From positions 1 through 64,000 of the forward strand of contig JADFNE010000002.1 in NCBI GenBank assembly GCA_022563535.1: DNA of 64,000 nt, written 5' to 3'. Below, piece by piece: positions 13,542 through 28,999 of this stretch. Source of the stretch: Myxococcales bacterium (GTDB lineage Bacteria > Myxococcota_A > UBA9160 > UBA4427). Both the position numbers and the translations under genes were made by a program. Below the pieces are notes generated by a model. The model saw only the letters and a program-made list of their open reading frames with translations. It ran no database searches and was not told the origin of the DNA. Each line of letters begins with the position of its first letter. Positions within the stretch are counted from its first letter, which is position 1.

Positions 13542-13617
13542 TGGTGAGCGCGCGGGGAATCGAACCCCGAACCTAGTGGTTAAGAGCCACTTGCTCTGCC
13601 AATTGAGCTACGCGCCC
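13542..13617 (-). tRNA. tRNA-Lys (anticodon CTT), intact copy
   Basis: On the minus strand this is a complete cloverleaf with acceptor GGGCGCG paired to CGCGCTC (one G-U), anticodon loop CTCTTAA with anticodon CTT, T-loop TTCGATT and an encoded 3' ACCA. A near-identical copy with a broken acceptor stem lies at 28628-28699, so this is the functional one. It sits within the left copy of the direct repeat bounding the 15-kb island. Confidence 0.95.
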
Positions 13618-13633
13618 TGCCGGACCTTAGAAT

Positions 13634-13820: not shown

Positions 13821-13870
13821 GCCCCTTTGTGGGGCATTGGAGCGCCGGGGTTTCTCGGTATGATTTCGGC

Positions 13871-14593
13871 ATGACCAGTCTCGCACTCTCACAGAAAGTG
13901 CAAATCCTGGGGAAAGTTCCGCTGTTCGAGTCGCTGGCGGAGGAGGATCTCGCAGCCATCGCCTCGGTCGCGATCAGCCGCAGCATCAAGGCCCGGGAAG
14001 AACTGTTCCACCAGGGTGATGAGGGGACGCACGTCTACGTCGTCGCGAGCGGGCAGCTCAAGGTCGTCACCACCTCGAGCGACGGGGACGACCTGATTTT
14101 CTGCCTTCTCGATCCGGGGGAAGTGATCGGCGAATTGGGCCTGCTGGCCAATCGCCCGCGCACCGCCACGATTACGGCCATCAAGGACAGCGAACTCATC
14201 GTAATCGATCGCCGCGATTTTCGGGCGCTTCTGCGCACACGGCCCGACGTTGCCTTCGAACTGCTAACGGTGCTGGCATGCAGACTCGCTCGAGTCAGCG
14301 AATTTGTGGAAGACACACAGTTCTTGAATCTCCCAGCCCGGCTGGCCAAGAAACTCATCAACTTCGCAAACCTTCACGGCAAGAGCGGCTCGGGAAGCTC
14401 GGGCCACGCTCTCGTGATTGACGTCAAGCTCTCCCAGGAAGAATGGGGGGATCTGGTTGGAACGACACGCGAAAGCGTCAATAAACAGTTCCGCGCCTGG
14501 AGCAGTGAGGGCCTGATCTCCCTCGAGGCAGGCAAGGTCGTGATTCACAAGCTCGACGAGATTGAAAAAATGGCAGCCTGCGTGGTGATCTGA
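13871..14593 (+). CDS. CRP/FNR-family cyclic-nucleotide-responsive regulator
   Basis: The 240-residue protein has a cNMP-binding beta-roll (about 20-140) including GEVIGELGLLANRPRTATITA, the phosphate-binding cassette with the conserved Glu and Arg of cAMP-binding proteins. A dimerisation helix follows, then a CRP-type winged helix-turn-helix (about 165-235) with LSQEEWGDLVGTTRESVNKQ. There is no N-terminal cysteine cluster, which argues against an FNR iron-sulfur sensor. It overlaps the next gene, a class III cyclase, by one base (TGATG), so ligand producer and sensor are probably translated together. Two CRP-like palindromes nearby (17489-17504 and 17994-18009) are candidate targets. The start at 13871 is chosen by family alignment; its ribosome binding site is weak. 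Confidence 0.92.
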   Translation: MTSLALSQKVQILGKVPLFESLAEEDLAAIASVAISRSIKAREELFHQGDEGTHVYVVASGQLKVVTTSSDGDDLIFCLLDPGEVIGELGLLANRPRTATITAIKDSELIVIDRRDFRALLRTRPDVAFELLTVLACRLARVSEFVEDTQFLNLPARLAKKLINFANLHGKSGSGSSGHALVIDVKLSQEEWGDLVGTTRESVNKQFRAWSSEGLISLEAGKVVIHKLDEIEKMAACVVI

Positions 14594-16551
14594 TGGGCTA
14601 TCGGTGGGGTATCGCGAAGTCGCGCCCAGCGCTGGCCTGCGCGATCGCTCTGGCGGTTTTCTTCGCACTCGGGTCCGCGCGATTGCTCGGCCTGCTCGAG
14701 GCACCAGAACTTGCGCTCTACGATCGTGATCGCGGTCTCGCCTCTCTAGCTTCCAGCCCCGAACCACCCATCACACTCGTCTTGATCGACGAAGCCGACA
14801 TCCGTCGTCACGGTCACCCCTTGCGCGACGAAATCCTGCGCACACTGATTGAAACCATCCTGGCCGCCGGGCCCCGTGCCCTGGCGATCGATCTCTACCG
14901 GGATCTTCCAGTTCCTCCGATTACCACAGGCGATCAGGCCAGCGATTCCCCGGCCTACCGCATGCTTGGTGAAACGATCATCAGCGATCCGCGGGTGGTA
15001 ATGATCATGAAGTTTCCCGATCCGAACTCGCAAGGAACCCCACCGCCGCGTTTTCTCCAGAGTACGGCGCAAGTGGGTTTCTCAGACCTGCCGGTCGATC
15101 CGGACGGGGTCGTACGCCGGGGGCTCCTCTACCTGTGGGACGGCGACTCTCCACGGCTCTCCATCTCGTTGCAGCTGGCCCTCCGCTACCTCGCCCTCGA
15201 CGGAATCTTTCCCGAAGCCGACCCAAACGATCCCGACGCCATGATGCTGGGTCCGGTTTCACTGCCTCCGTTGCAAGGAGATTTCGGACCTTACGTGCGG
15301 GCAGACGATGCCGGCTATCAGTTCCTGCTCGACTATCGCTGGGGTTCGAGACCGCTGCCATCGATAAAACTTTCACCCGTCTTGCAGCGAGACTTCGATC
15401 CCGAATTGTTCCGGGACCGAGTTGTCATGCTGGGTACTGCCGCGCACTCGGTGAAGGACTCGTTCCTTACCCCGCTCAATGTCGGTGTGAATGGTGGGAC
15501 AACCTTTGGGGTCGAGGTCCACGCTCAGGCGGTCGATCAACTCATCCGCTTTGGCCATGGTGCCAGTCGACCACTTGCGGAACCCGGCTGGGTCCTTACC
15601 TACGCGTCGATCTTCATTCTCGCCCTGGTGGGTGCTGGACTCGGGCTCTTTGGTCGCTCGCTATGGCTGCAGATCACTGGGCTCCTCGCCATCACCGCGA
15701 CGGTTGTCTATGCCGGCCGCGCCCTATTCGAGTTGGGTTGGTGGATCCCGGTCGTGCCACCGCTGTTGGCGGTGCTGATCTCGGCGGCGGCGGCAGTGGC
15801 GATCTTGTCGGTGCTCGAACGCGCTGAGCGTCGTCAGATTGCTGGACTCTTCTCACGCTTCCAGGGAGCAGTCGTGGCCGACGAAATCTGGCGGCGACGC
15901 TCGGAATTCATTGGCGAGGGAGACCGACCGGTAGCTCGCACCGTGGTGTTGACGGCGCTGATGTCGGATCTCGAGGGTTACACCGCGGCTTCGGAGCAGA
16001 TGGAGCCCGAAGAGCTGATGAGCTGGATCAACGAATACATGACGGCAATGGCCGAGCTCGTCGAAGCGCACGGTGGCGTGGTCGATGACTATGCAGGGGA
16101 TGGAGTGATGGCCAACTTTGGCTTTCCGGTGCCCAGCCAGACCGATGAAGCGATCGCAGGTGACGCCACCGCGGCGGTTCGTTGCGCGGTGGCCATGGGC
16201 GTGAAAATGCGCGAGCTGAATGCGAGTTGGGAAGCACGCGGTCTTCGCGTTGGCCGCTGTCGCGTGGGCATTTGCACCGGGCCTGCCGTGGTGGGGTGCG
16301 TGGGCGCCGCCAGCAGTCTCAAATACACATCCGTCGGCGACACCGTGAATACCGCAGCCCGACTCGAGAGCTTCGACAAGACGCAGTTTATCAGTGAGGC
16401 ACCAGGGGTAGTGTCACGTGTGCTGGTGAGCGAGGAGACCTGGCTTCGAACCCGAGATGCGTTCGAATTTCTCGATCTGGGAGCGCACTCGCTCAAAGGG
16501 AAACAGATGCCTACCAAGATCTATCGGGTCGTGGGCCCAAGCGGAGACTGA
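14593..16551 (+). CDS. CHASE2-domain class III adenylate/guanylate cyclase
   Basis: The 652-residue membrane protein has an N-terminal transmembrane helix (about 10-30), an extracytoplasmic CHASE2 sensor domain (about 35-320), a bundle of about three helices (about 335-405), and a cytoplasmic cyclase domain (about 450-630). The cyclase domain has the metal-binding motifs LMSDLEGYTAASE and DDYAGDGVMANFG, and YTSVGDTVNTAARLE near the purine and transition-state residues. It should make cAMP (or cGMP) in response to an envelope signal. It overlaps the CRP-like gene by one base. CHASE2 cyclases frequently neighbour CHAT, DUF928 and two-partner-secretion genes in cyanobacteria, from general knowledge, and the same set is found downstream here. 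Confidence 0.93.
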   Translation: MGYRWGIAKSRPALACAIALAVFFALGSARLLGLLEAPELALYDRDRGLASLASSPEPPITLVLIDEADIRRHGHPLRDEILRTLIETILAAGPRALAIDLYRDLPVPPITTGDQASDSPAYRMLGETIISDPRVVMIMKFPDPNSQGTPPPRFLQSTAQVGFSDLPVDPDGVVRRGLLYLWDGDSPRLSISLQLALRYLALDGIFPEADPNDPDAMMLGPVSLPPLQGDFGPYVRADDAGYQFLLDYRWGSRPLPSIKLSPVLQRDFDPELFRDRVVMLGTAAHSVKDSFLTPLNVGVNGGTTFGVEVHAQAVDQLIRFGHGASRPLAEPGWVLTYASIFILALVGAGLGLFGRSLWLQITGLLAITATVVYAGRALFELGWWIPVVPPLLAVLISAAAAVAILSVLERAERRQIAGLFSRFQGAVVADEIWRRRSEFIGEGDRPVARTVVLTALMSDLEGYTAASEQMEPEELMSWINEYMTAMAELVEAHGGVVDDYAGDGVMANFGFPVPSQTDEAIAGDATAAVRCAVAMGVKMRELNASWEARGLRVGRCRVGICTGPAVVGCVGAASSLKYTSVGDTVNTAARLESFDKTQFISEAPGVVSRVLVSEETWLRTRDAFEFLDLGAHSLKGKQMPTKIYRVVGPSGD

Positions 16552-16577
16552 ACCCGCGCGAGACGCGAGCGACCGTT

Positions 16578-17405
16578 TCAGTAGTCCCGAAAGAGCACGA
16601 GTCCCACCTGCTCGAGCATCGCGGCGCGGCGCGCGTGTGCGCTGGGATCATCCGGGCTCTGCCGGCCCCCCTGGCTCAATGCGTCGAGAGCCTCGTACCA
16701 GATACCCGACCCGGCAAACAGCCCGGCCACAGCGGCAGGCTCCACCTGGGCGACTCGAGATGCCAGCGCAGCATCATCAACACGCGAGATCGCACCGCGC
16801 GCAACCACGTCCGCCGAGCGTTTCTCTGGATTCGGCACCACGGCGACAAACCATTCGTAGTGTCTGCCCGACTCCAACTTCGCCTGGTGGTCGGCCAATG
16901 ACAGCAGATGAAATCCCGCCCGGAACGGGCCCGGAAGCATGACATCGACCATCGGCTCGATCAGATCCGGATCGAGCAAGGTGAAGTTCACGGAGTGGGG
17001 AGTATCCGCAGATAGATGCCAGTAGAGGTTGGGCTGCGCCGCCAGCGTCAACGCCGCCTCGTCAATCTCGGGCACCAGGGTCTGGATGGTGACCTCTGTA
17101 TTGAAACCTCGTGTGGCTCCGCCAATGCGAAAGGCTGGCGCACCGCGGCGGATACGCGGCACAAAGAACGGAGGAGCCGCATTCACTGGAGGGATCGCGG
17201 TCGCCTGTGGACTGGATTCGACCTCACCGCTTATCGCAACCCCTTCAACTGCGCGCTGAAGCTGCGCCTGGCTGGTCGATGCCAGCACAATGATGCTTGG
17301 CTTTTGCTGCTGGGCGGCCGCATCGGCCACACTCAAGGAGAGGGAAATTGTCGCAAGCACCGTGGCGACCAGTCCGACCTGCAGAACCCATCCGATTCTC
17401 GTCAT
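16578..17405 (-). CDS. DUF928 family secreted protein
   Basis: With the ATG at 17405 (AGGAG upstream), the product has 275 residues and a signal peptide ending near ADAAAQQ. The body shows the DUF928 order: a GGATRGF motif, TLVPEIDEAALTLAAQPNLYW, a beta domain with FTLLDPD, then GRHYEWFVAVVPNPEKRSADV, and a C-terminal helical part with AGLFAGSGIWYEALDALSQ. DUF928 proteins are known mainly from cyanobacteria, often near CHAT and haemagglutinin-like genes; their function is not established. It converges on the cyclase gene (26-bp gap). A CRP-like site (17489-17504) lies about 90 bp upstream of the start codon. Confidence 0.88.
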   Translation of the reverse strand: MTRIGWVLQVGLVATVLATISLSLSVADAAAQQQKPSIIVLASTSQAQLQRAVEGVAISGEVESSPQATAIPPVNAAPPFFVPRIRRGAPAFRIGGATRGFNTEVTIQTLVPEIDEAALTLAAQPNLYWHLSADTPHSVNFTLLDPDLIEPMVDVMLPGPFRAGFHLLSLADHQAKLESGRHYEWFVAVVPNPEKRSADVVARGAISRVDDAALASRVAQVEPAAVAGLFAGSGIWYEALDALSQGGRQSPDDPSAHARRAAMLEQVGLVLFRDY

Positions 17406-17488
17406 TTGCTTGGTACTCCTGTCGCAAATTCGCGCGTTGAATTCCTCCCCGTACGAATCCCAATATCGGAACCACGCGCTCCGCCGGC

Positions 17489-17504
17489 AGTGAATTACTT
17501 CACA
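17489..17504. promoter_or_regulatory. CRP-like operator upstream of the DUF928 gene
   Basis: AGTGAATTACTTCACA matches the E. coli CRP consensus TGTGA-N6-TCACA in nine of ten positions, and contains the perfect palindrome GTGAA-N4-TTCAC. Its centre is about 91 bp upstream of the DUF928 start codon. The same palindrome occurs at 17994-18009, and a CRP-family gene lies 3.6 kb away. The site is visible; binding is inferred. Confidence 0.55.
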
Positions 17505-17611
17505 GCGGGTACATCTGTTTCGCCAGAGCCTCCCCTGATTCCGGAACATTTTACACTACTCACCGGCGCGATAGGAGTTTTACACCTCTGCAGGGCGCGA
17601 AACCCGATGCG

Positions 17612-17899
17612 TCAGCGCTTGCTCATATACATGTGTTCAAACTTCACGGTCTTGGGCTCCCACCTCCACTCGCGCGGGAGTTCCGCCGGCGCCCTCGCGG
17701 CCCTCGCTGCGGCGGCCTCGACCTGCGCGGCCTGGTGGCCCCTATACGCCTCCACGGCGACGGGCGTACCGAATGCCACGGCAACACCCAACGCCATGAT
17801 GCCAGCGAGCTCGGCCGCGAAGCGCCTATCGATGTGGGGTCGGGGGGAGGCCGGGATTAGATTGTCGTAGTAGCTGTCGAGTTCGTGGAAGTAACTCAT
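17612..17899 (-). CDS. Small single-pass membrane protein of unknown function
   Basis: The 95-residue product starts MSYFHELDSYYDNLIPASP (GGAG upstream of the ATG at 17899) and has one hydrophobic segment at about 33-52. An Ala/Glu/Arg-rich helix follows, then a basic/aromatic tail ending in EHMYMSKR. I recognise no family. It lies in the same orientation as the DUF928 gene with a 206-bp gap, and a second CRP-like palindrome is centred about 102 bp upstream of its start. This makes it a likely co-regulated part of the island system, perhaps an inner-membrane accessory. Confidence 0.65.
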   Translation of the reverse strand: MSYFHELDSYYDNLIPASPRPHIDRRFAAELAGIMALGVAVAFGTPVAVEAYRGHQAAQVEAAAARAARAPAELPREWRWEPKTVKFEHMYMSKR

Positions 17900-17993
17900 C
17901 GTGTTCTCCAATTTTTCGTTCGTTCTCTCGTTTCGTTGGCAACCCCTGTCGCCAACCACGAGAAGCATCATCGTTCCCCCCAACGATCTCTGC

Positions 17994-18009
17994 TGTGAAG
18001 CGCTTCACT
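17994..18009. promoter_or_regulatory. CRP-like operator upstream of the 95-residue gene
   Basis: TGTGAAGCGCTTCACT matches TGTGA-N6-TCACA in nine of ten positions and contains the perfect 14-bp palindrome GTGAAGCGCTTCAC. It has the same GTGAA-N4-TTCAC core as the site at 17489-17504. Its centre lies about 102 bp upstream of the start codon at 17899. Confidence 0.55.
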
Positions 18010-18107
18010 GGGCGCGTAAATTTCTCAGAAAATTTTGGATGTGCTTCGTCATTATTCGATACGGCTGTGAAATTGCTGACTTTATTTCAGTGATTGGGGC
18101 TGAGGCT

Positions 18108-18569
18108 ATGATCCGCCAGATGTCGTTCAAGCTCCCACTGGTTCTCTCAATTGTTGCCGCCGTATTCAAGGATCGTGCAGATCTCGTCGCCGAGAATATT
18201 GCGCTGCGCCACCAACTTTCGTGCTTCATTCACCGAGGACCTCGCCCCAGGCTTCGGCACGTCGATCGTGTCTTCTGAGTGCTGCTCTCTCGCTGCTGGG
18301 ATGGTTGGAAGGAACGTCTGGTTATGGTGAAGCCGGCCACCGTTCTGGCCAGGCATCGCAAGGGGTTCCGGCTCTTCTGGCGTCAGCTCCGCCGAGTGAT
18401 TCGGTCGCATGGGGCCTACTACCACGAAGACCGAACGCAGCTCGGACTGGAAAAGGATGCTCCAGAAAATCGACCGATCGAACCCCGAGAAATGGGTGAG
18501 GTCATCGCGATTTCGCGGGTCGGAGGGCTGCATCATCGCTACTCGCGCGAACTTCGAAGGGCTGCCTAG
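18108..18569 (+). pseudogene. Decayed IS transposase (integrase-core type)
   Basis: The N-terminal part reads VFKDRADLVAENIALRHQLS, then LSRCWDGWKERLVMVKPATV and RHRKGFRLFWR, the conserved start of a large family of integrase-core (rve) transposases. Two lesions are clear. A TGA at 18276-18278 sits where Trp is expected (VF-stop-VLLSR), and the frame then jumps from the N-terminal region to the family's C-terminal end (YYHEDRTQLGLEKDAPENR and RVGGLHHRY), so the DDE catalytic core is deleted. It is non-functional. It marks past insertion inside the island, between its minus-strand and plus-strand halves. Confidence 0.85.
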
Positions 18570-18965
18570 GCTGGATTTGGCTTAATGACGATGCACAACG
18601 TTCGAATGAGAGACGGTGTCACAGCACTGGTACAATTTATCGGCAATTTCGAGCGATTTGTCCAACGGGAATTTATCGGCGAGCGCGAAAAGGCCGCTTG
18701 AATTCTTTAATGTCTAAGCGGCCTCTTGTCCAAGTTATGCGGCAAATTCGAGCGCTTTATCGGCCGATCTCCAGGCAGGAACCGAAGACCGTCTCGCAGA
18801 GAGAGCCGACTCTCTGTCCCTATCCGAAATTTTTTTCCGACGCACACTGCGTGTATACTGCTGCAGTGCCTTGAAGACAGTATTAGCGAGACTCCTGAGC
18901 CAATCACCCCAAACTACAGGGGCGGACCGAGATCGAGCTTGCCCCTCAGACTGATGCACGCTGTC
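18570..18965. other. Non-coding stretch after the IS remnant
   Basis: No gene is supported. It holds three related short motifs around ATTTATCGGC and GGCAAATTCGAGCG (18636-18770), probably degraded ends of the IS. There is a 9-bp inverted repeat AGGCCGCTT/AAGCGGCCT (18691-18699 and 18716-18724) and a 7-bp hairpin CAGAGAG/CTCTCTG (18797-18816) followed by a T7 run. A TATACT at 18854-18859 could be a -10 element for the large gene downstream, but no good -35 was found. Confidence 0.4.
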
Positions 18966-21900
18966 ATGATACGGTTTCTGCTAATCGCCGGATTTCTCCT
19001 CCTCACCGCAAGCCCCGGTTCAGCCCAGGTCTTCGTCTCGCCAACTACGACCTACACCTTGTCCTTCACCGACGCCCTCGGAACTACGAAGATGGGACTC
19101 GCGTACGATGGAACGAACTACTGGACGGTCACCGGTGGATTTTCCTCTGGTGAACGTCTAGCGCAGTACGACACCAACGGGGCGCTGATTTCCAAATTCT
19201 CTCCCGGGCGAGACTTTCGCTCCATCTTCAGGAACCAGGCAGGTGAAGCGTTCTCTCGAAGTTACAACTCCCCTGCCATTGAAAAGCAGACGTCGCCCGG
19301 TGTCTTCAGTGCGCATGCGACTCTCGCAGCCAACTCACTCGACCCACAGTCTACTGTCGTCCTCAACGGTGCGGGAACCGAGTACATCGCTCACGGCCCC
19401 AGCACTGGAGGGTCGGGCGGTGGCACGATCAGTCGCTGGGATCTGAACGGAAACTCATTGGGAACGGTCTCACTGTCCGGTTACGGCAGCGTCGCCGGGG
19501 AGAACGATGTACCGAACAACGTCAGCCTGGCCGCAGTTGGCGATCTCTGGCTGACCTCGAGTGACGGCGTGCTCTCGGCCTGGAACAGCAGTGGCAACCG
19601 TCTCGACCAGACGGCCCTCGTCGATGCGGGAACTCTATTCGGTGACAAGTGGACCCTGAGCTACGCGAGGGGAATGGTTTGGCTGGTCAACGCCGACCAG
19701 TGGCAGGGCTACGACGTTTTTCCGGGACAGAATCCGTATCTGTTCGCCGCAGATGGCTCCGGCGGCAACCTCAGCAACCTGATGCTCTTGAACGCCTTAA
19801 CGGGTTTGGTGGAGCAGGTGATTGGTCCCATTGGCTATTCCGTCACCGGGCTGGCACTGCATCCCTCCGGTGTACTCTTTGGTTCTACTTCCCTTGACGA
19901 TCCTGTGTCACCGGGGCATCTCATTCGTATCAACCCGATCACCGGGGCGGGGACCCTGGTGGGAGACTTCGGACTTGCGGACCACACGATGGCCGACCTC
20001 ACCGTGGCCTACACCGGCTCAGTCTTTGAGCTGAGGGGCTGGACCGAGTTCACTGCATCGGCATCCGCACCCAAGAACAGGCTCTTCCGTATCGACATGG
20101 AGACGGGCGCGGCCACCCAGCTCAGCGATTCGGGTTTGATCAACCCCGCCGGGGTGGGGCTGGCGACACAGCCGGACGAAACCCTCTTCTTCTCGGGTTA
20201 TGGTGCGAACGGTCTCCTGCATACTCTTACCGTCGCCGGAGTCGCGACCAGCGTCGCCACCATTTCGGGATCGGGTCAGACCGGAAGTATCAACGCCATG
20301 AGCTCCTGGAAGAACGGAGCGCTAGTAGCTTCCGTCGAGCTCGCGGGCGCGAACCGAATGCTGATTTCGATCGGCTCCAACACCGCCGCGGCGACCCCGA
20401 TTGGCAACACGGTGAATAACCTCGACGCGTTGGCCTTCTCGGCGTGCACGGTTCACGGAATTCCCAACTCCGGCTTCGGACCCGGCGTGGCGAGTTGGAC
20501 CAGCGTCGGTGCCGTAGAGGCTGTTACCGAGGATTTTGGCGTACAGAGCCAAATCGGTGCTCACCTGGCATATTTGTCTACGGCCTCGCTTGGCGGTCCG
20601 GCTCCGGTGGACGCCGCAACCCTGGATAGCTTGGCGGGTGGACCGCTGTCATCCATCGCCACGGACACCGTGGTCGAAGGCTCGGCCATGCGGGTCGAAT
20701 TCGAGACCCAGATGGCCGCAATTCTGTTTGTCCGCGGTCAATTTCTGACCAATGAGGGGACGCCGAGCTCGTTCAACGATTTTTCCTTCGTGAGTACCGG
20801 CACGGCGTCGCTGTTTTCCGACACGAACAACTCGTCATTCGACCCGTCCTACTTCACAACGTTCGCCGAACAAGGCGCAGGTTATTTCGAAGAGTTCTTA
20901 CCCATCGGCAGCCACTTCGTGTCGCTAGGTGTCGCCGACGTAAGAGATGCGTCAGTCGACTCTGCTCTTCTGGTCGATCAGGTCGTGCTTCATCGTTCCT
21001 TCCTCGGCCACGTTGCCGGCACGGTCGAAGCATGCAACGTACTCAGTCGCGTACGGGCAATCGATTCGCCTGTCATCAACAACATCGACCTGGCCCAGAC
21101 GACGCTCGTGCCCGTGGAGCTCACCGATTTGCCGGATCGACCGGCGGTTACCTTCACCATCACCCCCGCCAGTCTCGAGCCGCTGGTACGGATCGAATTC
21201 AGCGACTGCTTGGGAAACACGGGAGGCGCAACTTTCATCTCCAATCTCGACGTAGAGCGCGAGGAGGACGGCACGCGTTACTCCAAGGTCTACCACTATT
21301 TCCAATCGGCAGGGGAACGGGACGGTGAGGTCTGTGGCTACCAGATCAGTGGACTGCCCGGAGCCGTGGGGATTGTTGCAGTGACGATCGGGGGCGAGAC
21401 TCGGATACCGGAGGCAGGCGCGGACCCTCCCATTGTCGTTTGCACCGGGGAGGAGTGCGGCGGACTTTTGGAGGATCCCGACAGGGCGGCGGCCAATTTC
21501 ATTCCCGAAGAGGGCGGGGACTTCCGCTGGCTGGACGATGCCTCGCTCCACGGAAAGGGTATCTGCACCGGGCCGGACGAACAGGGCCCACCGATGACCG
21601 GCAACGGAGACATCGCCACCTACGAATACATCCTGGAAGCAGGCGCCACGGGCTGGGATTGCTGCACGTACCAGTGGACAGGCCTCGACGGCGTCGACTC
21701 CGAGGTGGGTTACGTCGTCTTCCAGCTCCCGGAAGGAAGCTTTCCGGTTACGCCCAACAATGATGCCGACGAACTTCTTGATCTCTGCGACGACGACGAC
21801 GACAACGACGGGCTGCCCGACACCGCGGAGACTGGAACGGGAATCTACGTATCCCCCAGCGATACGGGCACGGATCCGCTGCTGTTCGACACTGACGGGG

Positions 21901-22091
21901 ACGGCTACGGGGATTGGGAGGAGGTGCAGGCAGGCACGGACCCGAACGATTTCAACTCCCAGCCGGGCAGCCCAGAAGTGCCCGCGCTCTCGCGACCCCT
22001 CCAGTCATTGCTAGTGCTTCTACTGTTGGGCATTGGGTCTGTATTCATCCTTCCCGGCCTGCCCGACGGCCGATTTTCCCGACGCTCCTGA
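18966..22091 (+). CDS. Large surface protein with IPTL-CTERM-like sorting tail
   Basis: From the ATG at 18966 the product has 1041 residues and a cleavable signal peptide (LLIAGFLLLTASPGSAQ). About 420 residues follow with repeated strands of the kind found in beta-propellers (GLAYDGTNYWTV, GVGLATQPDETLFF). Then come further beta-rich regions, an Asp-rich thrombospondin type 3-like calcium-binding segment (DDDDDNDGLPD and DTDGDGYGDWEEVQAGTDP), and a C-terminal tail (about 1005-1041) with VPALS, a hydrophobic helix and an Arg-rich end. That tail resembles IPTL-CTERM sorting signals. It ends 28 bp before the CHAT exoprotein and is probably in the same operon. It may be a surface partner or substrate of the CHAT protease, which is inference only. 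The start has a weak ribosome binding site. Confidence 0.8.
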   Translation: MIRFLLIAGFLLLTASPGSAQVFVSPTTTYTLSFTDALGTTKMGLAYDGTNYWTVTGGFSSGERLAQYDTNGALISKFSPGRDFRSIFRNQAGEAFSRSYNSPAIEKQTSPGVFSAHATLAANSLDPQSTVVLNGAGTEYIAHGPSTGGSGGGTISRWDLNGNSLGTVSLSGYGSVAGENDVPNNVSLAAVGDLWLTSSDGVLSAWNSSGNRLDQTALVDAGTLFGDKWTLSYARGMVWLVNADQWQGYDVFPGQNPYLFAADGSGGNLSNLMLLNALTGLVEQVIGPIGYSVTGLALHPSGVLFGSTSLDDPVSPGHLIRINPITGAGTLVGDFGLADHTMADLTVAYTGSVFELRGWTEFTASASAPKNRLFRIDMETGAATQLSDSGLINPAGVGLATQPDETLFFSGYGANGLLHTLTVAGVATSVATISGSGQTGSINAMSSWKNGALVASVELAGANRMLISIGSNTAAATPIGNTVNNLDALAFSACTVHGIPNSGFGPGVASWTSVGAVEAVTEDFGVQSQIGAHLAYLSTASLGGPAPVDAATLDSLAGGPLSSIATDTVVEGSAMRVEFETQMAAILFVRGQFLTNEGTPSSFNDFSFVSTGTASLFSDTNNSSFDPSYFTTFAEQGAGYFEEFLPIGSHFVSLGVADVRDASVDSALLVDQVVLHRSFLGHVAGTVEACNVLSRVRAIDSPVINNIDLAQTTLVPVELTDLPDRPAVTFTITPASLEPLVRIEFSDCLGNTGGATFISNLDVEREEDGTRYSKVYHYFQSAGERDGEVCGYQISGLPGAVGIVAVTIGGETRIPEAGADPPIVVCTGEECGGLLEDPDRAAANFIPEEGGDFRWLDDASLHGKGICTGPDEQGPPMTGNGDIATYEYILEAGATGWDCCTYQWTGLDGVDSEVGYVVFQLPEGSFPVTPNNDADELLDLCDDDDDNDGLPDTAETGTGIYVSPSDTGTDPLLFDTDGDGYGDWEEVQAGTDPNDFNSQPGSPEVPALSRPLQSLLVLLLLGIGSVFILPGLPDGRFSRRS

Positions 22092-22119
22092 TCAAGATCC
22101 CGTGATCCGAACCTTGCCG

Positions 22120-25100
22120 ATGTCATTGGTTAAAATTGCGCTCGGCGTCGGGCTGCTTCTTCTTTATTCGACCTTTGCGCCCGCCGACGTGATCCGTGAC
22201 GGCACACTCGGCCCCGGTGTCGAAGTCCAGCCCGTCGGTCCCGACTACCTGATCCCATCCACGATGGGTGAAATCGTGGGGGGCAGGAATCTATTCCACA
22301 GTTTCTCGGAGTTCAGCCTGGGCCTCGATGGCAATGGCGATCGTCAGAATGCCGAGTTCTCTGGCCCCGATTCGATCGAAAACCTGCTGATCCGAGTGAC
22401 CGGAGACCAGCGCTCCGACCTGGATGGAAGGCTCCGCTCCACCATCTTCGGCGCGAATGTCTTCTTCATGAACCCGAACGGTGTGATATTCGGTCCCGAC
22501 GCCACTCTCGATGTCAGGGGCACCTTCGCAGTCACTACGTCGGACTACCTGAGACTCGGAAGTCTCGCGGGGGGCGGGATCTTCCACGCCACGCAGCCCG
22601 AACTCTCGCTGCTGAGCTTCGAGGACCCGTCGGCCTATGGCTTCGTAGGAGCGCCGGAACCCATTGAAGTGCACGGGAGCCGGCTCGAAGCGCCCAGTAT
22701 CAACATTACGGATCCAGAACAGCTTTTCGAAGGCGTGGCCTTCGTCGGCGGGGATCTGCTGTTCGAGGGACGAGGGGTGGGAGGGAGCCTCGCCTACCTG
22801 TCATCCCAGGTGGGGCAAATCGAGCTGGTAAGTGTCGCTTCGCCGGGCGAGGCACTCATCACCGAATCGGGCATTGAAGTGGACGGCTTCTCGGAGCTGG
22901 GCGACATCAAGATTGTCGACGACTTCGTGGTGAGCTCGGGCGGCGTGTCGCCTGGGGCTGGGCTCTTGAACTCGATCGTATTGGCCGGGGCCGGGGACAT
23001 CAACGTCCGGGGCGGGAGCCTGCTCGTCGAGGATTCGGAGATCCGGGCATTTACCGGCGGTTCGCTGGCGGGGGGGACGGTCGACATCGACGTTACCGGG
23101 GATGTCGTGTTGCGACGGGTGGTGTCGGAGAATCGTGTCGGCATTGATACGCAAAATGGTGTTCAGACACCGTTCTTCTTCTTCGGCGGAACCGGCGCTG
23201 CCGGTGACGTGCTGATCGCGGCTCGCAACATCCTACTGGAGAACGGCGCCGTGATCTCCAGCGTGAGCAAGTCAGACGGCCCGGGCGGCGCCATCGAGCT
23301 GCGCGCCGAAGAGAGCATCGAGATTGTGGGCCGGGGGCCAGGCGGAATCCGCAGCGCGCTCTTCGTAAACGCCGAGGGAACACGAGAAGCCGGAAGCATC
23401 CTGCTGCAGGCGCCGCGTATCGAGCTCGCTGACGAAGCAGCGGTCGTGGCGGAGACCCGCAATGACGCGGGCGATGCCGGCGAGATCGTGGTGAATGCCC
23501 GGGAACTCATCCTCACTGGGAACGCGAGGATCGACAGCAGCACCCGCGGCACGGGGGACGGCGGAGAAATTTTCATCGGCCGAGACCAGCCTCTGGAACT
23601 TCTGCGCATTTCAGGCCGGACGTCGGATGAGGAGTTCTCCGGTATCACAGCTCTCTCCCAGCCAGGGGCGCAGGGGCCAGCCGGCAGTATCGACATCCGG
23701 GCCGACACCGTCGAGATCTTCGACGGGGGCGAGATCAGTAGCGGAAGCCTGAGCGATGCGCTGGCTGGAAGCGTGACGCTCGAGGTCGGTGACCTCGTAC
23801 TCTCGAGCGGTACCATCGCGACATCGGCTCCCCTGTCCGATGGGGGCGACATCAACATCACCGCAAGTAACGGGGTGACGCTCCGAGACGGCAGTCGGAT
23901 TTCAGCCAGTGTCGGAGGCGGCGAGGGCGGCAGCGTCACAATCAGCGAGCCCGAGTTCGTGTTGCTCCGCGACGCCAGCGTCGTCAGCGCAAGCGCAGCG
24001 ACGTCACCGGGTACCGGTGGCCGCATCGAGTTCACCACCGGGGCGTTCTTCGCCGCGCCCGACAGTCAAGTTACCGCCTCGGCCCCCGGCGGCCCGGAGT
24101 TTCAGGGAACGGTGGAAATTACTTCCCCCGTCAACGATCTCGAGAGTCAGCTGAGTCCGCTGCAGACGAAGTTTTTGGATGCCGCCTCCAAGCTGCAGCC
24201 GACCTGCGCTGCTCGAACCGGCGCGGGCCCGGTGGGTACCTTCACGGTTTCAAGTCACCCCGGGCTGCCGGCCGCGCCGGACGGCCCGCTAATCGCGTTT
24301 GAGGACATCGGACCAATCGACGCGGATCTCCTCACGGCTGTCGCTGCGAAACATGAAACTGTGTCGGCTGCGAATCGCCTGTTGACAGCCGGTGCGCACG
24401 CCTTTCGGAGCGGCCACTTTGCGGAGGCGGAAGTCGAATACCTGCGCGCATCGGATCTTTATGCCGCGGTGGCGGAGCCGGCGGCGCGGGTCGCCGCCCT
24501 GCGCGGGCTGGCCCAGAGCCAACTGGCGAAAGGACGATACGCCGAATCCGCGAAGACCCTGAACGAAGCCGTGTCCGTCGCGAGAACCCAACGGAAGCCC
24601 ATTTCGTTGGCGTCGCTTTACGGAAGTCTGGGCAACGCCTACCTAGCGCTCGGCCAGGTCGACAAGGCAGAGGAGTACCTGCGCAAAGCAATCGACTTCG
24701 CTCGCCAGAGTTCGGATCCGGGCCTCGCCCGGCTTCACAACAACCTGGGAAACCTCCACGCTACCCAGCAGCAACTCGAAGCAGCGCTGGCCGCGTACGG
24801 AAAGAGCGCGCGGTTGGCGGGGGAGGCACGGTGGCCTGAGGAGCAGGCTCGAGCACTCGCAAATGCCGCCCTCACTGCGCTAGAAGCGAGTCAGACGAGC
24901 CGAGCGTGGTCACTGATGGAGAGTGCCAGCACTCAGGCGGCGGAACTTTCCGCCAGTCACGCATCCGTTTCGATCTGGATTCAACTGGGCAGCTCCTACA
25001 TGCGACTCGCCGACAGTTCGACCTCCCACCGCGAGGACGGCCTTCTCTCCGCTCACCGGGAACTCAGTCGGGCGGTTTCGCAAGCCAAGGAACTCGGTGA

Positions 25101-26577
25101 TGACCGGGCGCTCAGCTACGCGCTGGGGTATCTGGGCTCCCTCTACCAACGTGAGAATCGAATCCGCGAGGCGCTCTACTTGACGCGCGAGGCCTTGCAA
25201 GTGGGAGAAAAAGCCGCGTCCGAGTCGGTCTACCGCTGGAACTACCAGGAAGGGGAGCTTCTCTGGGCCCTGGGCCGGCCCAATCAGGCACTGGCCTCCT
25301 ATGGCCGAGCCGTGCGGATCCTCGAGAAGTCGCGACAGGAAACCCTGGCCCAATACGGCTCGCCGGTACTTCACTTCCGGCGGATGATGGCTCCAGCTTA
25401 TATCACCTATACCGACGCATTGCTGCGCGCGTCGGACCTGACGACCGAATCAGCGGACAGGAAACGTCTCTGGATCGAGGCGCGGGCGACCATGGAGGCG
25501 TTCAAGGCGGCAGAACTCCGTGATTACTTCCGGGACATGTGCGTCGCCGATTTTGAGGCCCGGAAAGTCGATCTCGACCTGATATCCCGCGAGACGCGAG
25601 CCGCAGTGGTGTACCCGATCCTACTACCGGACCGACTGGAGCTTCTGGTGAGCCTGCCCTCGGGACTCGAACGCTTCACTGTTCCCGTAGACGCTATCGA
25701 ACTCGCTGCGGTGGTGAAGGCCTACCGCCAGAAGCTGATGCTGCGTTGGTCGCGCTTCCCCGCGGAGGCGCATCAGCTCTACACCTGGCTCGTGCAGCCC
25801 TATGTCAACCTCCTGTCCGAGCAAGCTGTCGAGTCGCTGGTGTTCGTCCCGGATGGTGTCCTGCGCACGGTCCCCATGGCGGCTCTCCACGACGGCGAGG
25901 ATTACCTGGTGCGGCGCTACGCAGTGAGCGTGGCCCCGGGACTCTCCTTGCTCGATCCAAAGGAGCACGATGCTGCGAACGCCAAGCTGCTTGCAGTCGG
26001 AGTGAGCGAGCCAGTGCAGGGCTTCCGGGCGCTTCCCGGCGCGGCGCGAGAGGTCGAGGCCCTCCACGAGATTTACGGCGGTCAGGTACTACTGAACGAG
26101 GCCTTCAATTCTGCACGGTTCGCGGATGAGCTGGAGTCGGGGGAACCTGCGCTGGTGCACCTGGCGTCCCACGCGGTCTTCACTGGCGACGCCGCGACGA
26201 GCTTCGTGCTCACCCATGACGGGCGCATAACGATGGAAGAAATTGCCCAGATCGTCGCCCCGACGAACTACAGGAGGCAACCCATCGAGCTGCTGACGCT
26301 CTCGGCATGCGAAACTGCGGCGGGGGACGAACGCGCCGCGCTGGGTCTCGCAGGCGTTGCGATCCGCTCCGGCGCGCGCAGTGCATTGGGGAGCCTGTGG
26401 GCCATCCAGGACGATGCCACGTATAAGTTGATGCTGAGTTTCTACCGAGAGCTGCGGGCCGGAAGCATCTCCAAGACTGAGGCGTTGCGGCGTGCCCAGC
26501 TGGAGCTATTGGACAGTCACCGCTTCTCCGCCCCCTACTACTGGTCGGCCTTCCTTCTCATTGGTAATTGGCAATGA
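22120..26577 (+). CDS. Two-partner-secretion exoprotein with TPRs and CHAT peptidase
   Basis: The 1485-residue protein begins with a signal peptide (1-25). The TPS domain follows (about 26-190) with FFMNPNGVIFGPDATLDVRG (NPNG at 118-121), the region FhaC-type porins recognise. A right-handed beta-helix of Gly/Asp/Ser-rich repeats extends to about 690, then tetratricopeptide repeats (about 740-1090), and a CHAT domain to the end. The CHAT dyad is visible: His1351 in LVHLASHAVF and Cys1397 in LTLSACETAAGDERAALGL. CHAT proteases are caspase relatives. Here the enzyme should be carried to the cell surface or released. The porin gene follows with an ATGA overlap. A GTG six codons upstream is an alternative start. 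Confidence 0.93.
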   Translation: MSLVKIALGVGLLLLYSTFAPADVIRDGTLGPGVEVQPVGPDYLIPSTMGEIVGGRNLFHSFSEFSLGLDGNGDRQNAEFSGPDSIENLLIRVTGDQRSDLDGRLRSTIFGANVFFMNPNGVIFGPDATLDVRGTFAVTTSDYLRLGSLAGGGIFHATQPELSLLSFEDPSAYGFVGAPEPIEVHGSRLEAPSINITDPEQLFEGVAFVGGDLLFEGRGVGGSLAYLSSQVGQIELVSVASPGEALITESGIEVDGFSELGDIKIVDDFVVSSGGVSPGAGLLNSIVLAGAGDINVRGGSLLVEDSEIRAFTGGSLAGGTVDIDVTGDVVLRRVVSENRVGIDTQNGVQTPFFFFGGTGAAGDVLIAARNILLENGAVISSVSKSDGPGGAIELRAEESIEIVGRGPGGIRSALFVNAEGTREAGSILLQAPRIELADEAAVVAETRNDAGDAGEIVVNARELILTGNARIDSSTRGTGDGGEIFIGRDQPLELLRISGRTSDEEFSGITALSQPGAQGPAGSIDIRADTVEIFDGGEISSGSLSDALAGSVTLEVGDLVLSSGTIATSAPLSDGGDINITASNGVTLRDGSRISASVGGGEGGSVTISEPEFVLLRDASVVSASAATSPGTGGRIEFTTGAFFAAPDSQVTASAPGGPEFQGTVEITSPVNDLESQLSPLQTKFLDAASKLQPTCAARTGAGPVGTFTVSSHPGLPAAPDGPLIAFEDIGPIDADLLTAVAAKHETVSAANRLLTAGAHAFRSGHFAEAEVEYLRASDLYAAVAEPAARVAALRGLAQSQLAKGRYAESAKTLNEAVSVARTQRKPISLASLYGSLGNAYLALGQVDKAEEYLRKAIDFARQSSDPGLARLHNNLGNLHATQQQLEAALAAYGKSARLAGEARWPEEQARALANAALTALEASQTSRAWSLMESASTQAAELSASHASVSIWIQLGSSYMRLADSSTSHREDGLLSAHRELSRAVSQAKELGDDRALSYALGYLGSLYQRENRIREALYLTREALQVGEKAASESVYRWNYQEGELLWALGRPNQALASYGRAVRILEKSRQETLAQYGSPVLHFRRMMAPAYITYTDALLRASDLTTESADRKRLWIEARATMEAFKAAELRDYFRDMCVADFEARKVDLDLISRETRAAVVYPILLPDRLELLVSLPSGLERFTVPVDAIELAAVVKAYRQKLMLRWSRFPAEAHQLYTWLVQPYVNLLSEQAVESLVFVPDGVLRTVPMAALHDGEDYLVRRYAVSVAPGLSLLDPKEHDAANAKLLAVGVSEPVQGFRALPGAAREVEALHEIYGGQVLLNEAFNSARFADELESGEPALVHLASHAVFTGDAATSFVLTHDGRITMEEIAQIVAPTNYRRQPIELLTLSACETAAGDERAALGLAGVAIRSGARSALGSLWAIQDDATYKLMLSFYRELRAGSISKTEALRRAQLELLDSHRFSAPYYWSAFLLIGNWQ

Positions 26578-28352
26578 GGCGCATGAATACGGCCATGAGA
26601 TTCAGAACCCAACGCCGGTGGACGGGCGAAAGCCTGTGGATCGCCGCGTGGGTCCTCCTCTGCGCTTGGACTGCAAGCGCCCAGGACGTCCTGCCCGGGC
26701 AAGATCGTCCCGAACTCCCGAGTTACTCCGAGCCGGAACTCGAGTCGCAGGTTCTACAGTTGCCGCTGGTGCCTCGCTTCGAGCCGCCTCCTATAACTCC
26801 GGGAGACGTCCTGCCTCCCCTTCCGCTGGCCGAGGGCGAGGATACAGACGGGCTTCGGGGCGGCAGTCTCGTCACCCTGACCGAGATCCGCGTGTTGGGC
26901 AACACCGTACTGTTACAAGAAACCCTAGACACTGTGCGACGCCCATACCTGGGTCGGGAGCTTGGCTTCGAAGAGTTGCAGGAGCTGCGTGATGCACTCA
27001 CCGCCGCCTACGTGGAGCGTGGTTATGTGACGTCCGGCGCAGTCGTGCGCAGCCAGTCTCTGACCGACGGTGTGCTCGAGGTGTGGATCATCGAGGGAAG
27101 GCTGACTGAAATTCAGGTCCACACCGACGGTCGATTGCATCGAAGCTACGTTGAGCGGCGCATTGCCAGTATGGCGGAGGCCATCGTAAACGTAAACGAT
27201 CTCGAACGGCGACTGCGGGTGCTTCAGCAAGACGAACGCATCCAAGCCCTCGAGGCGTCACTGCTACCGGGCCAACAACGTGGGGAGGCAGTGCTTCGCG
27301 TGCGGGTCATCGAGGCGCGTCCGTACTACGCACGATTCCGCGGCAACAACTACAGCTCGCCCGTCATCGGCTCTGGCCGAGGCGAAATTCTCCTCGGATG
27401 GAACGATGTATCCGGCGGGGGGGACGCCATGCAGGTGGAATACAAAGGTGGAGTAGGGCTCCAGGACGTGCAGGTACGCTACGAGGTTCCGCTCAACGCC
27501 TACGACACCCGCTTCGGGCTACACCTGCGTCGCACCTGGACGGATGTAGTAGAGGCGCCCTTCGACGACTTCGGGATCAAGGGAGAGACAGCCACCTACG
27601 GGTTCAGTCTGAGGCACCCGTTCTATCGCACACCCGAGACCACGGTGGAGACTTTCTTGCGCGGAGAGTGGCGCCGTAGCAAGACCTTTCTTTTCGGCGA
27701 ACCATTCTCCTTCGTGTCCGGGCCAGACGCCGGGGTCAGCAAGCTGGCGGTACTGCGCCTCGGAGGAAACTGGACCTGGCGCGCGGATGGTCATGTGCTG
27801 GCGGCGCGCAGCGTCTTCAACATCGGGCTGCCGATTTTCGGCGCTACTGATCACTCCGGCGACATTCCCGACGGGAAGTTTTTTTCGTGGCTAGGTCAGG
27901 TGCAATGGGCCGAGCGCCTACCGAACTTCTGGGACGTGCAAATCCTGGCGCGGGCGGACGTCCAGCTCTCGGACCGTCCCCTGTTGGGCATTGAACAGTT
28001 CGCGGTGGGTGGCCACGCTACCGTCCGCGGCTATCGCGAGAATCGACTCGTCAGGGACAATGGTCTGGTCGGCTCGCTCGAGATCCGGGTACCAGTGCCG
28101 TTTCCAAGCTGGGGGGGATGGCAGCCGCACTTCGCCTTGACTCCCTTCTTCGACGCCGGTTACTCGTGGAACACGGATCGAATGGAGATCGGCGCCACCA
28201 CCCTTTTGAGCGCCGGCATCGGCGGCCGCCTCGCGATCAACGAGAACATCCTTGTCGACGTCAACTGGGGCAAGGCATTGAACGATGTGGAAACTGTCGG
28301 GGATGATCTCCAGGACAACGGTCTCCACATAGGTGCCAGCTATACCTGGTGA
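26574..28352 (+). CDS. ShlB/FhaC-type two-partner-secretion porin
   Basis: The 592-residue protein is the outer-membrane transporter for the preceding exoprotein. It has a signal peptide (cleavage near ASAQD), a proline-rich linker, POTRA domains (about 95-250; the first contains LTEIRVLGNTVL), and a C-terminal 16-strand barrel. The conserved lid-loop motif VRGY is at 484-487 (ATVRGYREN), and the end, LHIGASYTW, has a terminal aromatic residue as required for BAM insertion. The ATG at 26574 overlaps the exoprotein's TGA (ATGA), so the pair is translationally coupled. Other ATG codons lie a few codons downstream. Confidence 0.94.
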   Translation: MRRMNTAMRFRTQRRWTGESLWIAAWVLLCAWTASAQDVLPGQDRPELPSYSEPELESQVLQLPLVPRFEPPPITPGDVLPPLPLAEGEDTDGLRGGSLVTLTEIRVLGNTVLLQETLDTVRRPYLGRELGFEELQELRDALTAAYVERGYVTSGAVVRSQSLTDGVLEVWIIEGRLTEIQVHTDGRLHRSYVERRIASMAEAIVNVNDLERRLRVLQQDERIQALEASLLPGQQRGEAVLRVRVIEARPYYARFRGNNYSSPVIGSGRGEILLGWNDVSGGGDAMQVEYKGGVGLQDVQVRYEVPLNAYDTRFGLHLRRTWTDVVEAPFDDFGIKGETATYGFSLRHPFYRTPETTVETFLRGEWRRSKTFLFGEPFSFVSGPDAGVSKLAVLRLGGNWTWRADGHVLAARSVFNIGLPIFGATDHSGDIPDGKFFSWLGQVQWAERLPNFWDVQILARADVQLSDRPLLGIEQFAVGGHATVRGYRENRLVRDNGLVGSLEIRVPVPFPSWGGWQPHFALTPFFDAGYSWNTDRMEIGATTLLSAGIGGRLAINENILVDVNWGKALNDVETVGDDLQDNGLHIGASYTW

Positions 28353-28377
28353 GCAGCCGAACACCTCACACCTGGGA

Positions 28378-28479: not shown

Positions 28480-28627
28480 TCGTCCTGGCGGTGCGGGTCG
28501 GAAGTCTTCGAACTTGTCTCCGTATTCTTCGGGCCGCCCGCATCGGAGCAATTTACCAGGGATTCCGCGCAATTTGTCATACTGCGACTTATCGGCGGAA
28601 TCTAAACATCAGCTTCTTTTTCCTATC

Positions 28628-28699
28628 CTCCGCGCGGGGCATCGAACCCCGAACCTAGTGGTTAAGAGCCACTTGCTCTGCCAATTGAGCTACGCGCCC
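28628..28699 (-). pseudogene. tRNA-Lys copy with broken acceptor stem
   Basis: It is near-identical to the tRNA-Lys at 13542-13617 from position 1 through the T arm, with the same CTT anticodon. However, the 3' acceptor strand is CGCGGAG instead of CGCGCTC, so pairs 1-3 cannot form, and no CCA is encoded. The T-loop has one change. It is almost certainly non-functional and marks the point where the island's right end interrupted the original tRNA. Confidence 0.8.
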
Positions 28700-28999
28700 G
28701 GCCGGACCTTAGAATGCTGGGGGAACCCCGGCAAGAGTCCTCGGGGTTTTCTCAAACGGGGGGACCACCGCGCGTGCACACTCGTTGCAGATCTGGACTA
28801 CGAGCTGTCGGGATCGCCGAACCCGCCGCCGCCCGGGGTCTCGATCAAGAGTCGATCCCCCGGCTCGAGTGCGATTGAACACTTTGACGCGAGATCCTCT
28901 GGGCTTGCCCCGGCGCGGATGACTCGGTTGCGGCCACGCTTCCCAGGCGAGCCCCCCGCCATTCCGTACGGAGGATGAACTCTGCGCTCGGTCAACAGG
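28635..28999. repeat. Right copy of the direct repeat flanking the island
   Basis: This is the counterpart of 13553-13820. It includes most of tRNA-Lys, the upstream hairpin and the true 3' end of the hydantoinase gene, with the roughly 100 bp (28861-28960) that the left copy has lost. Identity is about 92% over the first 226 bp. Confidence 0.9.
28716..28732 (-). terminator. Conserved hairpin after hydantoinase (right copy)
   Basis: GCTGGGG-GAA-CCCCGGC forms the same 7-bp stem as 13634-13650, with a G-C pair replacing A-T at one position. It lies about 65 bp after the hydantoinase stop on the minus strand. Confidence 0.4.

What the first reader, a model, noticed from the sequence alone, without database searches (positions are those of the whole stretch)
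13871..28352. Candidate system: envelope-sensing cyclase and CRP controlling surface export of a CHAT peptidase
One island holds a CRP-type regulator overlapping a CHASE2 cyclase, a DUF928 secreted protein, a small membrane protein, a large surface protein with a sorting tail, a TPS exoprotein with TPRs and a caspase-like CHAT domain (His1351, Cys1397), and its coupled porin. CHAT, DUF928, CHASE2 and TPS genes are known to co-occur in cyanobacteria, but as far as I know the function of the set is not described. An exported caspase-like protease under a dedicated second-messenger circuit would be new. Possible roles are contact-dependent killing, surface-protein maturation or defence.
Basis: partly seen in the sequence, partly recalled or inferred. 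Interest (0 to 1): 0.78.

Follow-up and report, generated by a model that had tools for sequence, protein, structure and literature searches.

The report
Widespread cyclase-linked surface caspase-like protease system
A 15-kb genomic island encodes a caspase-like protease built to be exported to the bacterial surface, beside an envelope-sensing nucleotide cyclase and its DNA-binding partner; the same gene set recurs in at least nine bacterial groups, and no paper describing its function was found.

Summary
Pfam confirms CRP, CHASE2-cyclase, DUF928, TPS-TPR-CHAT and the ShlB porin. His1351 and Cys1397 are invariant in 110 of 110 aligned relatives, and the CHAT model matches Csx29 best. In 80 genomes of the same order, DUF928 lies within 15 kb of CHAT in 25 of 56 cases (0.7 expected) and of CHASE2 in 28 of 56 (0.5 expected). 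The cluster recurs in Nitrospirota, Desulfobacterota, Proteobacteria, SAR324, Verrucomicrobiota, Methylomirabilota and Cyanobacteriota.

New evidence:
- A CRP-type palindrome (GTGAA-N4-TTCAC) occurs 5 times in the 4.6-Mb genome. Two copies are in this island, ~91 bp before DUF928 and ~102 bp before a small membrane protein. Relatives have it before DUF928, CHASE2, TPS-CHAT and CRP genes.
- DUF928 comes in two exclusive forms: secreted beside CHASE2 cyclases, or as the outer domain of an anti-sigma factor beside an ECF sigma factor. It looks like an interchangeable envelope sensor.
- The island is an insertion at tRNA-Lys; three congeners have an empty site.

Not shown: proteolysis, substrate, the cyclic nucleotide made, or CRP control of the CHAT operon in this genome.

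The parts
13542..13617 (-). intact tRNA-Lys(CTT), left edge of the island
   Evidence: ARAGORN, Rfam 70 bits
13549..13778 (.). left copy of the 230-nt direct repeat (tRNA-Lys plus a duplicated 3' end of the hydantoinase gene)
   Evidence: hydantoinase C-terminus matched at 13719-13826
13871..14593 (+). CRP-family regulator (cNMP-binding plus Crp-type HTH)
   Evidence: Pfam; orthologues beside CHASE2/DUF928 in 8 further genomes (with 14 and 16)
14593..16551 (+). CHASE2 receptor plus class III nucleotide cyclase, translationally coupled to CRP
   Evidence: Pfam; catalytic domain closest to CyaB 3r5g
16578..17405 (-). secreted DUF928 protein: signal peptide, Ig-like beta-sandwich and helical C-terminus
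   Evidence: Pfam, AlphaFold2 pLDDT 91.5, Foldseek Ig-like folds
17489..17504 (.). CRP-type palindrome AGTGAATTACTTCACA, centre 91 bp upstream of the DUF928 start
17612..17899 (-). 95-aa small membrane protein
   Evidence: sequence; no homologue in the loci held
17994..18009 (.). CRP-type palindrome TGTGAAGCGCTTCACT, centre 102 bp upstream of the small membrane protein
18109..18569 (+). degraded transposase-like remnant (in-frame stop) between the palindrome and the surface-protein operon
   Evidence: reading of the translation from memory of DDE transposases; no Pfam match to ORF 17901-18278, which holds its first part
18966..22091 (+). large secreted protein: signal peptide, TSP3 repeat, VPALS/hydrophobic/Arg tail
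   Evidence: Pfam TSP3_bac; weak homologues beside CHAT loci L055 and L059
22120..26577 (+). TpsA exoprotein: signal peptide, TPS domain, beta-helix region, TPR, CHAT peptidase domain (His1351, Cys1397)
   Evidence: Pfam, alignments, model and Foldseek, numbering
26574..28352 (+). TpsB transporter (POTRA_2 plus ShlB barrel), overlapping the CHAT gene
   Evidence: Pfam, junction
28628..28698 (-). degenerate second tRNA-Lys at the right edge
28631..28860 (.). right copy of the 230-nt direct repeat, 92% identical

Best explanation
The island is a recently gained envelope-signalling and surface-proteolysis module. Output arm: TpsB (26574-28352) secretes the TpsA-CHAT protein (22120-26577), a TPR-CHAT cysteine peptidase that acts at or outside the cell surface; its most likely partner or substrate is the large surface protein encoded just before it (18966-22091). 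Sensing arm: the secreted Ig-like DUF928 protein reports the state of the envelope to the CHASE2 receptor. Its cytoplasmic cyclase then makes a cyclic nucleotide that activates the overlapping CRP. CRP binds GTGAA-N4-TTCAC palindromes before DUF928 and the small membrane protein, closing a feedback loop; in relatives the same sites also precede the cyclase, TPS-CHAT and CRP genes. In other genomes the same DUF928 domain is the outer part of an anti-sigma factor paired with an ECF sigma factor, so DUF928 is an exchangeable sensor and the CHAT/TPS/surface-protein set is the constant output. Shown: gene content, catalytic residues, co-occurrence, palindrome enrichment, two DUF928 contexts. Inferred: secretion, proteolysis, substrate, DUF928-CHASE2 contact, CRP binding, messenger.
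For: Domains and dyad. CHAT model matches Csx29 (8eex, E 7.7e-15), the membrane anti-sigma factor DdvA, separase, gingipain and caspases. In 80 genomes of the order: DUF928 near CHAT 25 of 56 (0.7 expected), DUF928 near CHASE2 28 of 56 (0.5), CHAT near ShlB 33 of 79 (0.8); 32 of 34 genomes with DUF928 also have CHAT, Fisher 1.2e-10 without correction for relatedness. Outside the order, among 45 CHAT loci of at least 17 kb: TPS 35, DUF928 33, ShlB 28, CHASE2 24. Palindrome: 2 of 5 genome-wide copies in the island; TGTGAA-N4-TTCACA found in 45 of 80 genomes against one for the reversed control pattern; 12 of 15 near-perfect sites in the order loci held lie in upstream regions of system genes, 1.55 expected. 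L202 repeats the same CRP-cyclase-DUF928 arrangement in another genus, CRP 69% identical, with a perfect site before DUF928. L221 has a perfect site directly before a TPS-CHAT gene. Site counts track presence of the CRP orthologue: mean 2.9 against 0.5 per genome, p 7e-6, uncorrected for relatedness. DUF928 beside ECF genes is the anti-sigma type and none of those is beside CHASE2 (ECF and zinc-finger Pfam).
Against: In this genome no palindrome lies directly before the surface-protein/CHAT/porin operon, and a transposase remnant separates the nearest one from it. The palindromes are part of a wider regulon in several relatives, so another CRP-family protein could use them. CRP is adjacent in only a minority of clusters. 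Many CHASE2-DUF928 pairs have no CHAT gene within 15 kb (CHASE2 near CHAT only 7 of 72), so the sensing arm is not tied to CHAT everywhere. The cyclase has Asp where the aligned CyaB has the purine-contacting Lys. No substrate or cleavage site was identified. Most genomes compared are fragmented metagenome assemblies.
Confidence: 0.5

Rival explanations
1. The CHAT protein is itself part of the sensing chain: an extracytoplasmic site-1-type protease that cleaves DUF928 (secreted, or on the anti-sigma factor) to switch the signal, as Csx29 cleaves the anti-sigma-like Csx30.
For: Csx29 cleaves Csx30, which inhibits the ECF-like CASP-sigma (PMC10028731). CHAT structural neighbours include Csx29 and the transmembrane anti-sigma factor DdvA. 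DUF928 and CHAT are tightly linked, and in several relatives CHAT lies directly beside ECF plus anti-sigma-DUF928 (L060, L061, L064). Unfused CHAT proteins mostly have signal-like N-termini (89 of 99).
Against: In the window CHAT is fused to a TPS domain with its own TpsB, which should place it outside the cell, away from DUF928. Many DUF928-CHASE2 pairs have no CHAT within 15 kb.
Confidence: 0.2
2. Two independent modules (cyclase/CRP/DUF928 and surface-protein/TPS-CHAT/TpsB) that merely share an island; the sensor does not control the protease.
For: The modules are separated by a transposase remnant, and no palindrome lies immediately before the second operon. CHASE2-CHAT proximity is weaker than CHASE2-DUF928.
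Against: DUF928-CHAT proximity is strong (25 of 56, 0.7 expected); CHAT, CHASE2 and DUF928 are contiguous in several phyla (L085, L108, L113, L117, L123, L128); palindromes precede CHAT genes in L221 and L067.
Confidence: 0.2
3. Contact-dependent killing or another antagonistic exoprotein, with CHAT as the toxic tip.
For: TpsA/TpsB architecture resembles CdiA/CdiB delivery; a C-terminal enzymatic domain.
Against: No VENN motif, no immunity-type gene after the CHAT gene (the next gene is TpsB, which overlaps it), CHAT in most relatives is a separate protein with its own signal-like N-terminus, and the domain is conserved rather than a variable tip.
Confidence: 0.06
4. Anti-phage defence (cyclic-nucleotide signalling to a caspase-like effector).
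For: The cyclase scores to Pycsar PycC models (5e-22) and CRP to the cNMP-binding part of Pycsar effectors; CHAT proteins act in CRISPR type III.
Against: These are shared-domain matches: the cyclase has a CHASE2 receptor, the regulator has a DNA-binding HTH, and the CHAT protein carries a secretion signal and TPS domain, so it is not built as a cytoplasmic suicide effector.
Confidence: 0.03

Closest known systems
Csx29 (TPR-CHAT) / Csx30 / CASP-sigma, type III-E CRISPR Craspase
   Same: TPR plus CHAT peptidase, same fold (8eex E 7.7e-15), His-Cys pair at similar spacing (46 here; H615 and C658 in Csx29); in relatives an ECF sigma and anti-sigma partner is encoded beside it
   Different: extracytoplasmic and fused to a TPS exoprotein; no CRISPR effector; no detectable sequence match to any PDB chain with the profile
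DdvA, transmembrane anti-sigma factor (PDB 8rot, 8rw5)
   Same: structural neighbour of the CHAT domain in an envelope-signalling protein
   Different: matched only through the predicted fold; here CHAT and the anti-sigma factor are separate proteins and the output in the window is a cyclase/CRP; its paper is not in the library searched
Two-partner secretion systems (FhaB/FhaC, HMW1A/B)
   Same: TPS domain on the exoprotein, POTRA_2 plus ShlB barrel transporter next to it
   Different: exoprotein ends in TPR plus CHAT peptidase instead of an adhesin or toxin tip
Class III cyclase plus CRP-family pairs (P. aeruginosa CyaB/Vfr, R. centenum GcyA/CgrA; from memory)
   Same: membrane class III cyclase signalling to a CRP-family regulator; catalytic domain closest to CyaB 3r5g
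   Different: CHASE2 receptor, genes overlap, DUF928 partner, Asp at the purine-contact position
Nostoc punctiforme WD40-CHASE2-DUF928 gene cluster (PMC5587647)
   Same: CHASE2, DUF928 and beta-propeller proteins adjacent
   Different: the paper mentions no CHAT and gives no mechanism; the only paper in the library naming DUF928

Membership tests
CHAT peptidase (clan CD) | CHAT domain above Pfam cut-off | tested here: met
   203 bits against cut-off 24
CHAT peptidase (clan CD) | catalytic His and Cys present | tested here: met
   His1351, Cys1397; invariant in 110 of 110
CHAT peptidase (clan CD) | caspase-like fold | tested here: met
   model pLDDT 86.6, best PDB matches Csx29, separase, gingipain, caspase
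CHAT peptidase (clan CD) | proteolytic activity | not testable with these tools
   needs protein biochemistry
Two-partner secretion pair | TpsA with signal peptide and TPS domain | tested here: met
   TPS 9.5e-26, TIGR01901 3.7e-15; signal peptide read from sequence
Two-partner secretion pair | adjacent TpsB with POTRA domain and barrel | tested here: met
   POTRA_2 2.9e-20, ShlB 1.5e-24, overlapping genes
Two-partner secretion pair | actual secretion | not testable with these tools
   needs secretome data
cNMP-responsive CRP regulator | cNMP-binding domain plus Crp-type HTH | tested here: met
   binding cassette GELGLLANRPRTA, HTH RESVNK
cNMP-responsive CRP regulator | CRP-type operator in the circuit | tested here: met
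   two GTGAA-N4-TTCAC sites, 2 of 5 in the genome; conserved in relatives; binding itself not tested
cNMP-responsive CRP regulator | which nucleotide it binds | not testable with these tools
   Asp/Lys charge swap in the cyclase and RTA in the cassette leave cAMP or cGMP open
Contact-dependent inhibition (CdiBAI) | VENN-delimited toxin tip and immunity gene after cdiA | tested here: not met
   no VENN; next gene is TpsB
Pycsar defence | soluble cyclase and cNMP-binding effector without DNA-binding HTH | tested here: not met
   CHASE2 receptor and Crp HTH present

The most novel reading that the evidence does not exclude
DUF928 is a general, unrecognised envelope-sensor module that plugs into either anti-sigma/ECF or CHASE2-cyclase/CRP signalling, and the extracytoplasmic CHAT peptidase is its partner protease: an envelope counterpart of the Csx29-Csx30-sigma cascade, spread over at least nine bacterial groups.
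Probability: 0.2. Interest if true: 0.82.

Novelty: new variant of a known kind. Interest (0 to 1): 0.62.

Why it matters
It would give a role to DUF928, a family named in one paper of the library searched, and put caspase-like CHAT peptidases outside the cytoplasm under defined envelope signalling in many environmental bacteria. The conserved palindrome, the two exclusive DUF928 contexts and the invariant dyad turn a vague co-occurrence into specific, testable predictions.

Tried and rejected
A DUF928 alignment had no stretch conserved enough for a collection scan, so CHAT was used as the anchor; the 80 loci are therefore the nearest CHAT relatives, not a random sample. Two region requests were one base too long. 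Sequence searches of PDB with the CHAT and DUF928 profiles gave nothing. Foldseek for DUF928 gave only generic Ig folds, no specific relative. A CHASE2-cyclase-DUF928 single ORF (L114) looked like a fusion, but the join is an intact-looking signal peptide in frame, so it may be a lost stop or an assembly error. The 'CRP' of L122 has no Pfam HTH, so it was not counted as a CRP. CRP-profile matches in L108, L116 and L134 lie in oversized ORFs and were not counted. In other phyla the palindrome is not enriched, so the footprint claim is limited to this order. The three other palindromes in the own genome may be chance: the reversed control has 3. Tyrosine-integrase insertion was considered and not adopted: no integrase was noted in the island, and the repeat extends upstream of the tRNA rather than covering only its 3' end. 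Paper searches for CHAT with TPS, with CHASE2/DUF928 and with haemagglutinin in cyanobacteria found no description of the system.
Full report
Observation. With sensible starts: CRP 13871-14593; CHASE2-cyclase 14593-16551 (TGATG overlap); DUF928 17405-16578 on the minus strand; 95-aa small membrane protein 17899-17612; large secreted protein 18966-22091; TpsA-TPR-CHAT 22120-26577; TpsB 26574-28352.

The island. It is bounded by a tRNA-Lys (13542-13617) and a degenerate second copy (28628-28698) inside 230-nt direct repeats, 92% identical. The last ~36 codons of the neighbouring hydantoinase gene are duplicated too (13719-13826). In the three other members of the genus, hydantoinase, tRNA-Lys, tRNA-Leu and trigger factor are contiguous, with 0.7-2.2 kb between hydantoinase and trigger factor and no island. 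The repeats are closer to each other (92%) than the hydantoinase region is to the relatives (76-78%), so the gain is recent in this lineage. No integrase was noted; the mechanism of gain is open.

Co-occurrence. Family searches over the same 80 genomes of the order, compared, give, within 15 kb: DUF928 near CHAT 25 of 56 (0.7 expected), DUF928 near CHASE2 28 of 56 (0.5), CHAT near ShlB 33 of 79 (0.8), but CHASE2 near CHAT only 7 of 72 (0.6). Expectation assumes random placement in 4.8 Mb; contig breaks make the observed counts lower bounds. Phyletic association of DUF928 with CHAT is 32 of 34 (Fisher 1.2e-10, not corrected for relatedness). A scan of named genomes with the CHAT alignment returned 80 loci from Nitrospirota, Desulfobacterota, Alpha-, Beta- and Gammaproteobacteria, SAR324, Verrucomicrobiota, Methylomirabilota, Cyanobacteriota and this order, whose records are titled Myxococcales or Deltaproteobacteria. 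Of the 45 with at least 17 kb, TPS is present in 35, DUF928 in 33, ShlB in 28 and CHASE2 in 24. Candidatus Competibacter phosphatis (L105) holds the full set including a true CRP.

The protease. His and Cys are invariant in 26 of 26 and 110 of 110 aligned CHAT domains. The model (pLDDT 86.6) matches Csx29 first, then the anti-sigma factor DdvA, separase, gingipain and caspases. In 89 of 99 relatives with a complete 5' end the protein has a hydrophobic N-terminal segment (a crude hydropathy criterion), and 10 are fused to TPS. So CHAT in this family is usually extracytoplasmic, but only the fused form, as in the window, has its own route across the outer membrane.

DUF928. The model (pLDDT 91.5) is an Ig-like beta-sandwich followed by four helices, with only generic Ig matches. 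DUF928 occurs in two forms. In one it is a short secreted protein beside a CHASE2 cyclase. In the other it is the C-terminal, presumably outer, domain of a protein with an anti-sigma-type N-terminus (sub-threshold zf-HC2 in L061) and a membrane span, directly after an ECF sigma gene and mostly beside CHAT/TPS genes. None of the ECF-linked copies is beside CHASE2. Two listed as short (L054, L069) were mis-assigned to a weak internal match; their real DUF928 domain is C-terminal. This is the main basis for calling DUF928 a sensor with interchangeable outputs; it is inference from context.

Regulation. GTGAA-N4-TTCAC occurs twice in the 64-kb window (0.06 expected from shuffles) and five times in the whole genome: 17490, before DUF928, and 17995, before the small membrane protein. 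TGTGAA-N4-TTCACA is a genuine motif of the order: it occurs in 45 of 80 genomes, while the reversed control occurs in one. In the order loci held, 12 of 15 near-perfect sites lie in upstream regions of system genes (1.55 expected). Seven of the exact sites listed lie 303-418 bp before a DUF928 domain, as in the window (367 bp). L202 repeats CRP, cyclase and convergent DUF928 with the same overlap, in another genus, with a perfect site before DUF928; L221 has a perfect site directly before a 1520-aa TPS-CHAT gene; L220 has one 102 bp before the CRP gene. CRP orthologues are adjacent to CHASE2 and/or DUF928 in G037, G039, G045, G046, G047, G048, G049 and G013 as well as here. Genomes with the orthologue have more sites (2.9 against 0.5, p 7e-6, uncorrected). 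The regulon is wider than this system, reaching other secreted proteins and ECF sigma genes.

Messenger. At the purine-contact position the window cyclase and most order relatives have Asp (VVDDY.GD) where Nitrospira and cyanobacterial partners mostly have Lys, and the residue two before the Thr swaps the other way (Lys for Glu/Asp). The solved neighbours include CyaB (adenylate) and 2w01, which I recall as a guanylyl cyclase. cAMP or cGMP is open.

Reading. The best-supported account is an envelope sensor (DUF928, CHASE2-cyclase, CRP) linked to a surface-proteolysis output (TpsA-CHAT, TpsB, surface protein). The partners of CHAT in relatives include large secreted beta-propeller/TSP3 proteins (FG-GAP, RCC1, BNR), often with dockerin-like or PEP-CTERM-like tails by eye, which makes the co-encoded surface protein the first substrate to test. 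The strongest rival is that CHAT cuts DUF928 itself, by analogy with Csx29 and Csx30. Killing and defence readings found no specific support.

Known or new. The library of 5.39 million open papers has one paper naming DUF928, which describes a WD40-CHASE2-DUF928 cluster in Nostoc punctiforme and infers signalling, and none on CHAT with two-partner secretion. Subscription journals are mostly not held. Components are known kinds; the assembly and the exchange of signalling outputs appear undescribed.

Noticed in passing
window 13542-28860; L174, L175, L176: The island sits between duplicated tRNA-Lys/hydantoinase 3' ends; three congeners have the empty site. No integrase was noted and the repeat extends 5' of the tRNA, which is unlike ordinary tRNA-targeted integration.
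   Followed up: partly
G000:C19:26376-33417 (L044 6362-14216): Second TPS-CHAT gene (1971 aa) with its own TpsB in the same genome, without DUF928, CHASE2 or CRP nearby.
   Followed up: partly
L085, L086, L108, L128 against L087, L113, L119, L129: Charge swap in CHASE2 cyclases: Asp at the purine-contact site with Lys before the YT motif, or Lys with Glu/Asp. It covaries in the cyclases where both sites were read, apart from one Gln/Glu case, and may mark a change of nucleotide or a compensated active site.
   Followed up: partly
L114 3427-6042: CHASE2-cyclase and DUF928 in one ORF, joined through an in-frame signal-peptide-like segment (Rhodospirillales MAG); possible fusion or lost stop.
   Followed up: partly
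L050, L055, L047, L088, L159: Tandem duplicated DUF928 genes, some with a CRP-type palindrome between them (L047, L050, L055).
   Followed up: no
G071 (26 exact TGTGAA-N4-TTCACA sites): One genome of the order has a strongly expanded set of the palindrome.
   Followed up: no
L061 8247-12038, L055 7931-11956, L059 16187-19999: Large proteins beside CHAT/TPS genes use different propeller families (FG-GAP, RCC1, BNR) with dockerin-like or PEP-CTERM-like tails.
   Followed up: partly
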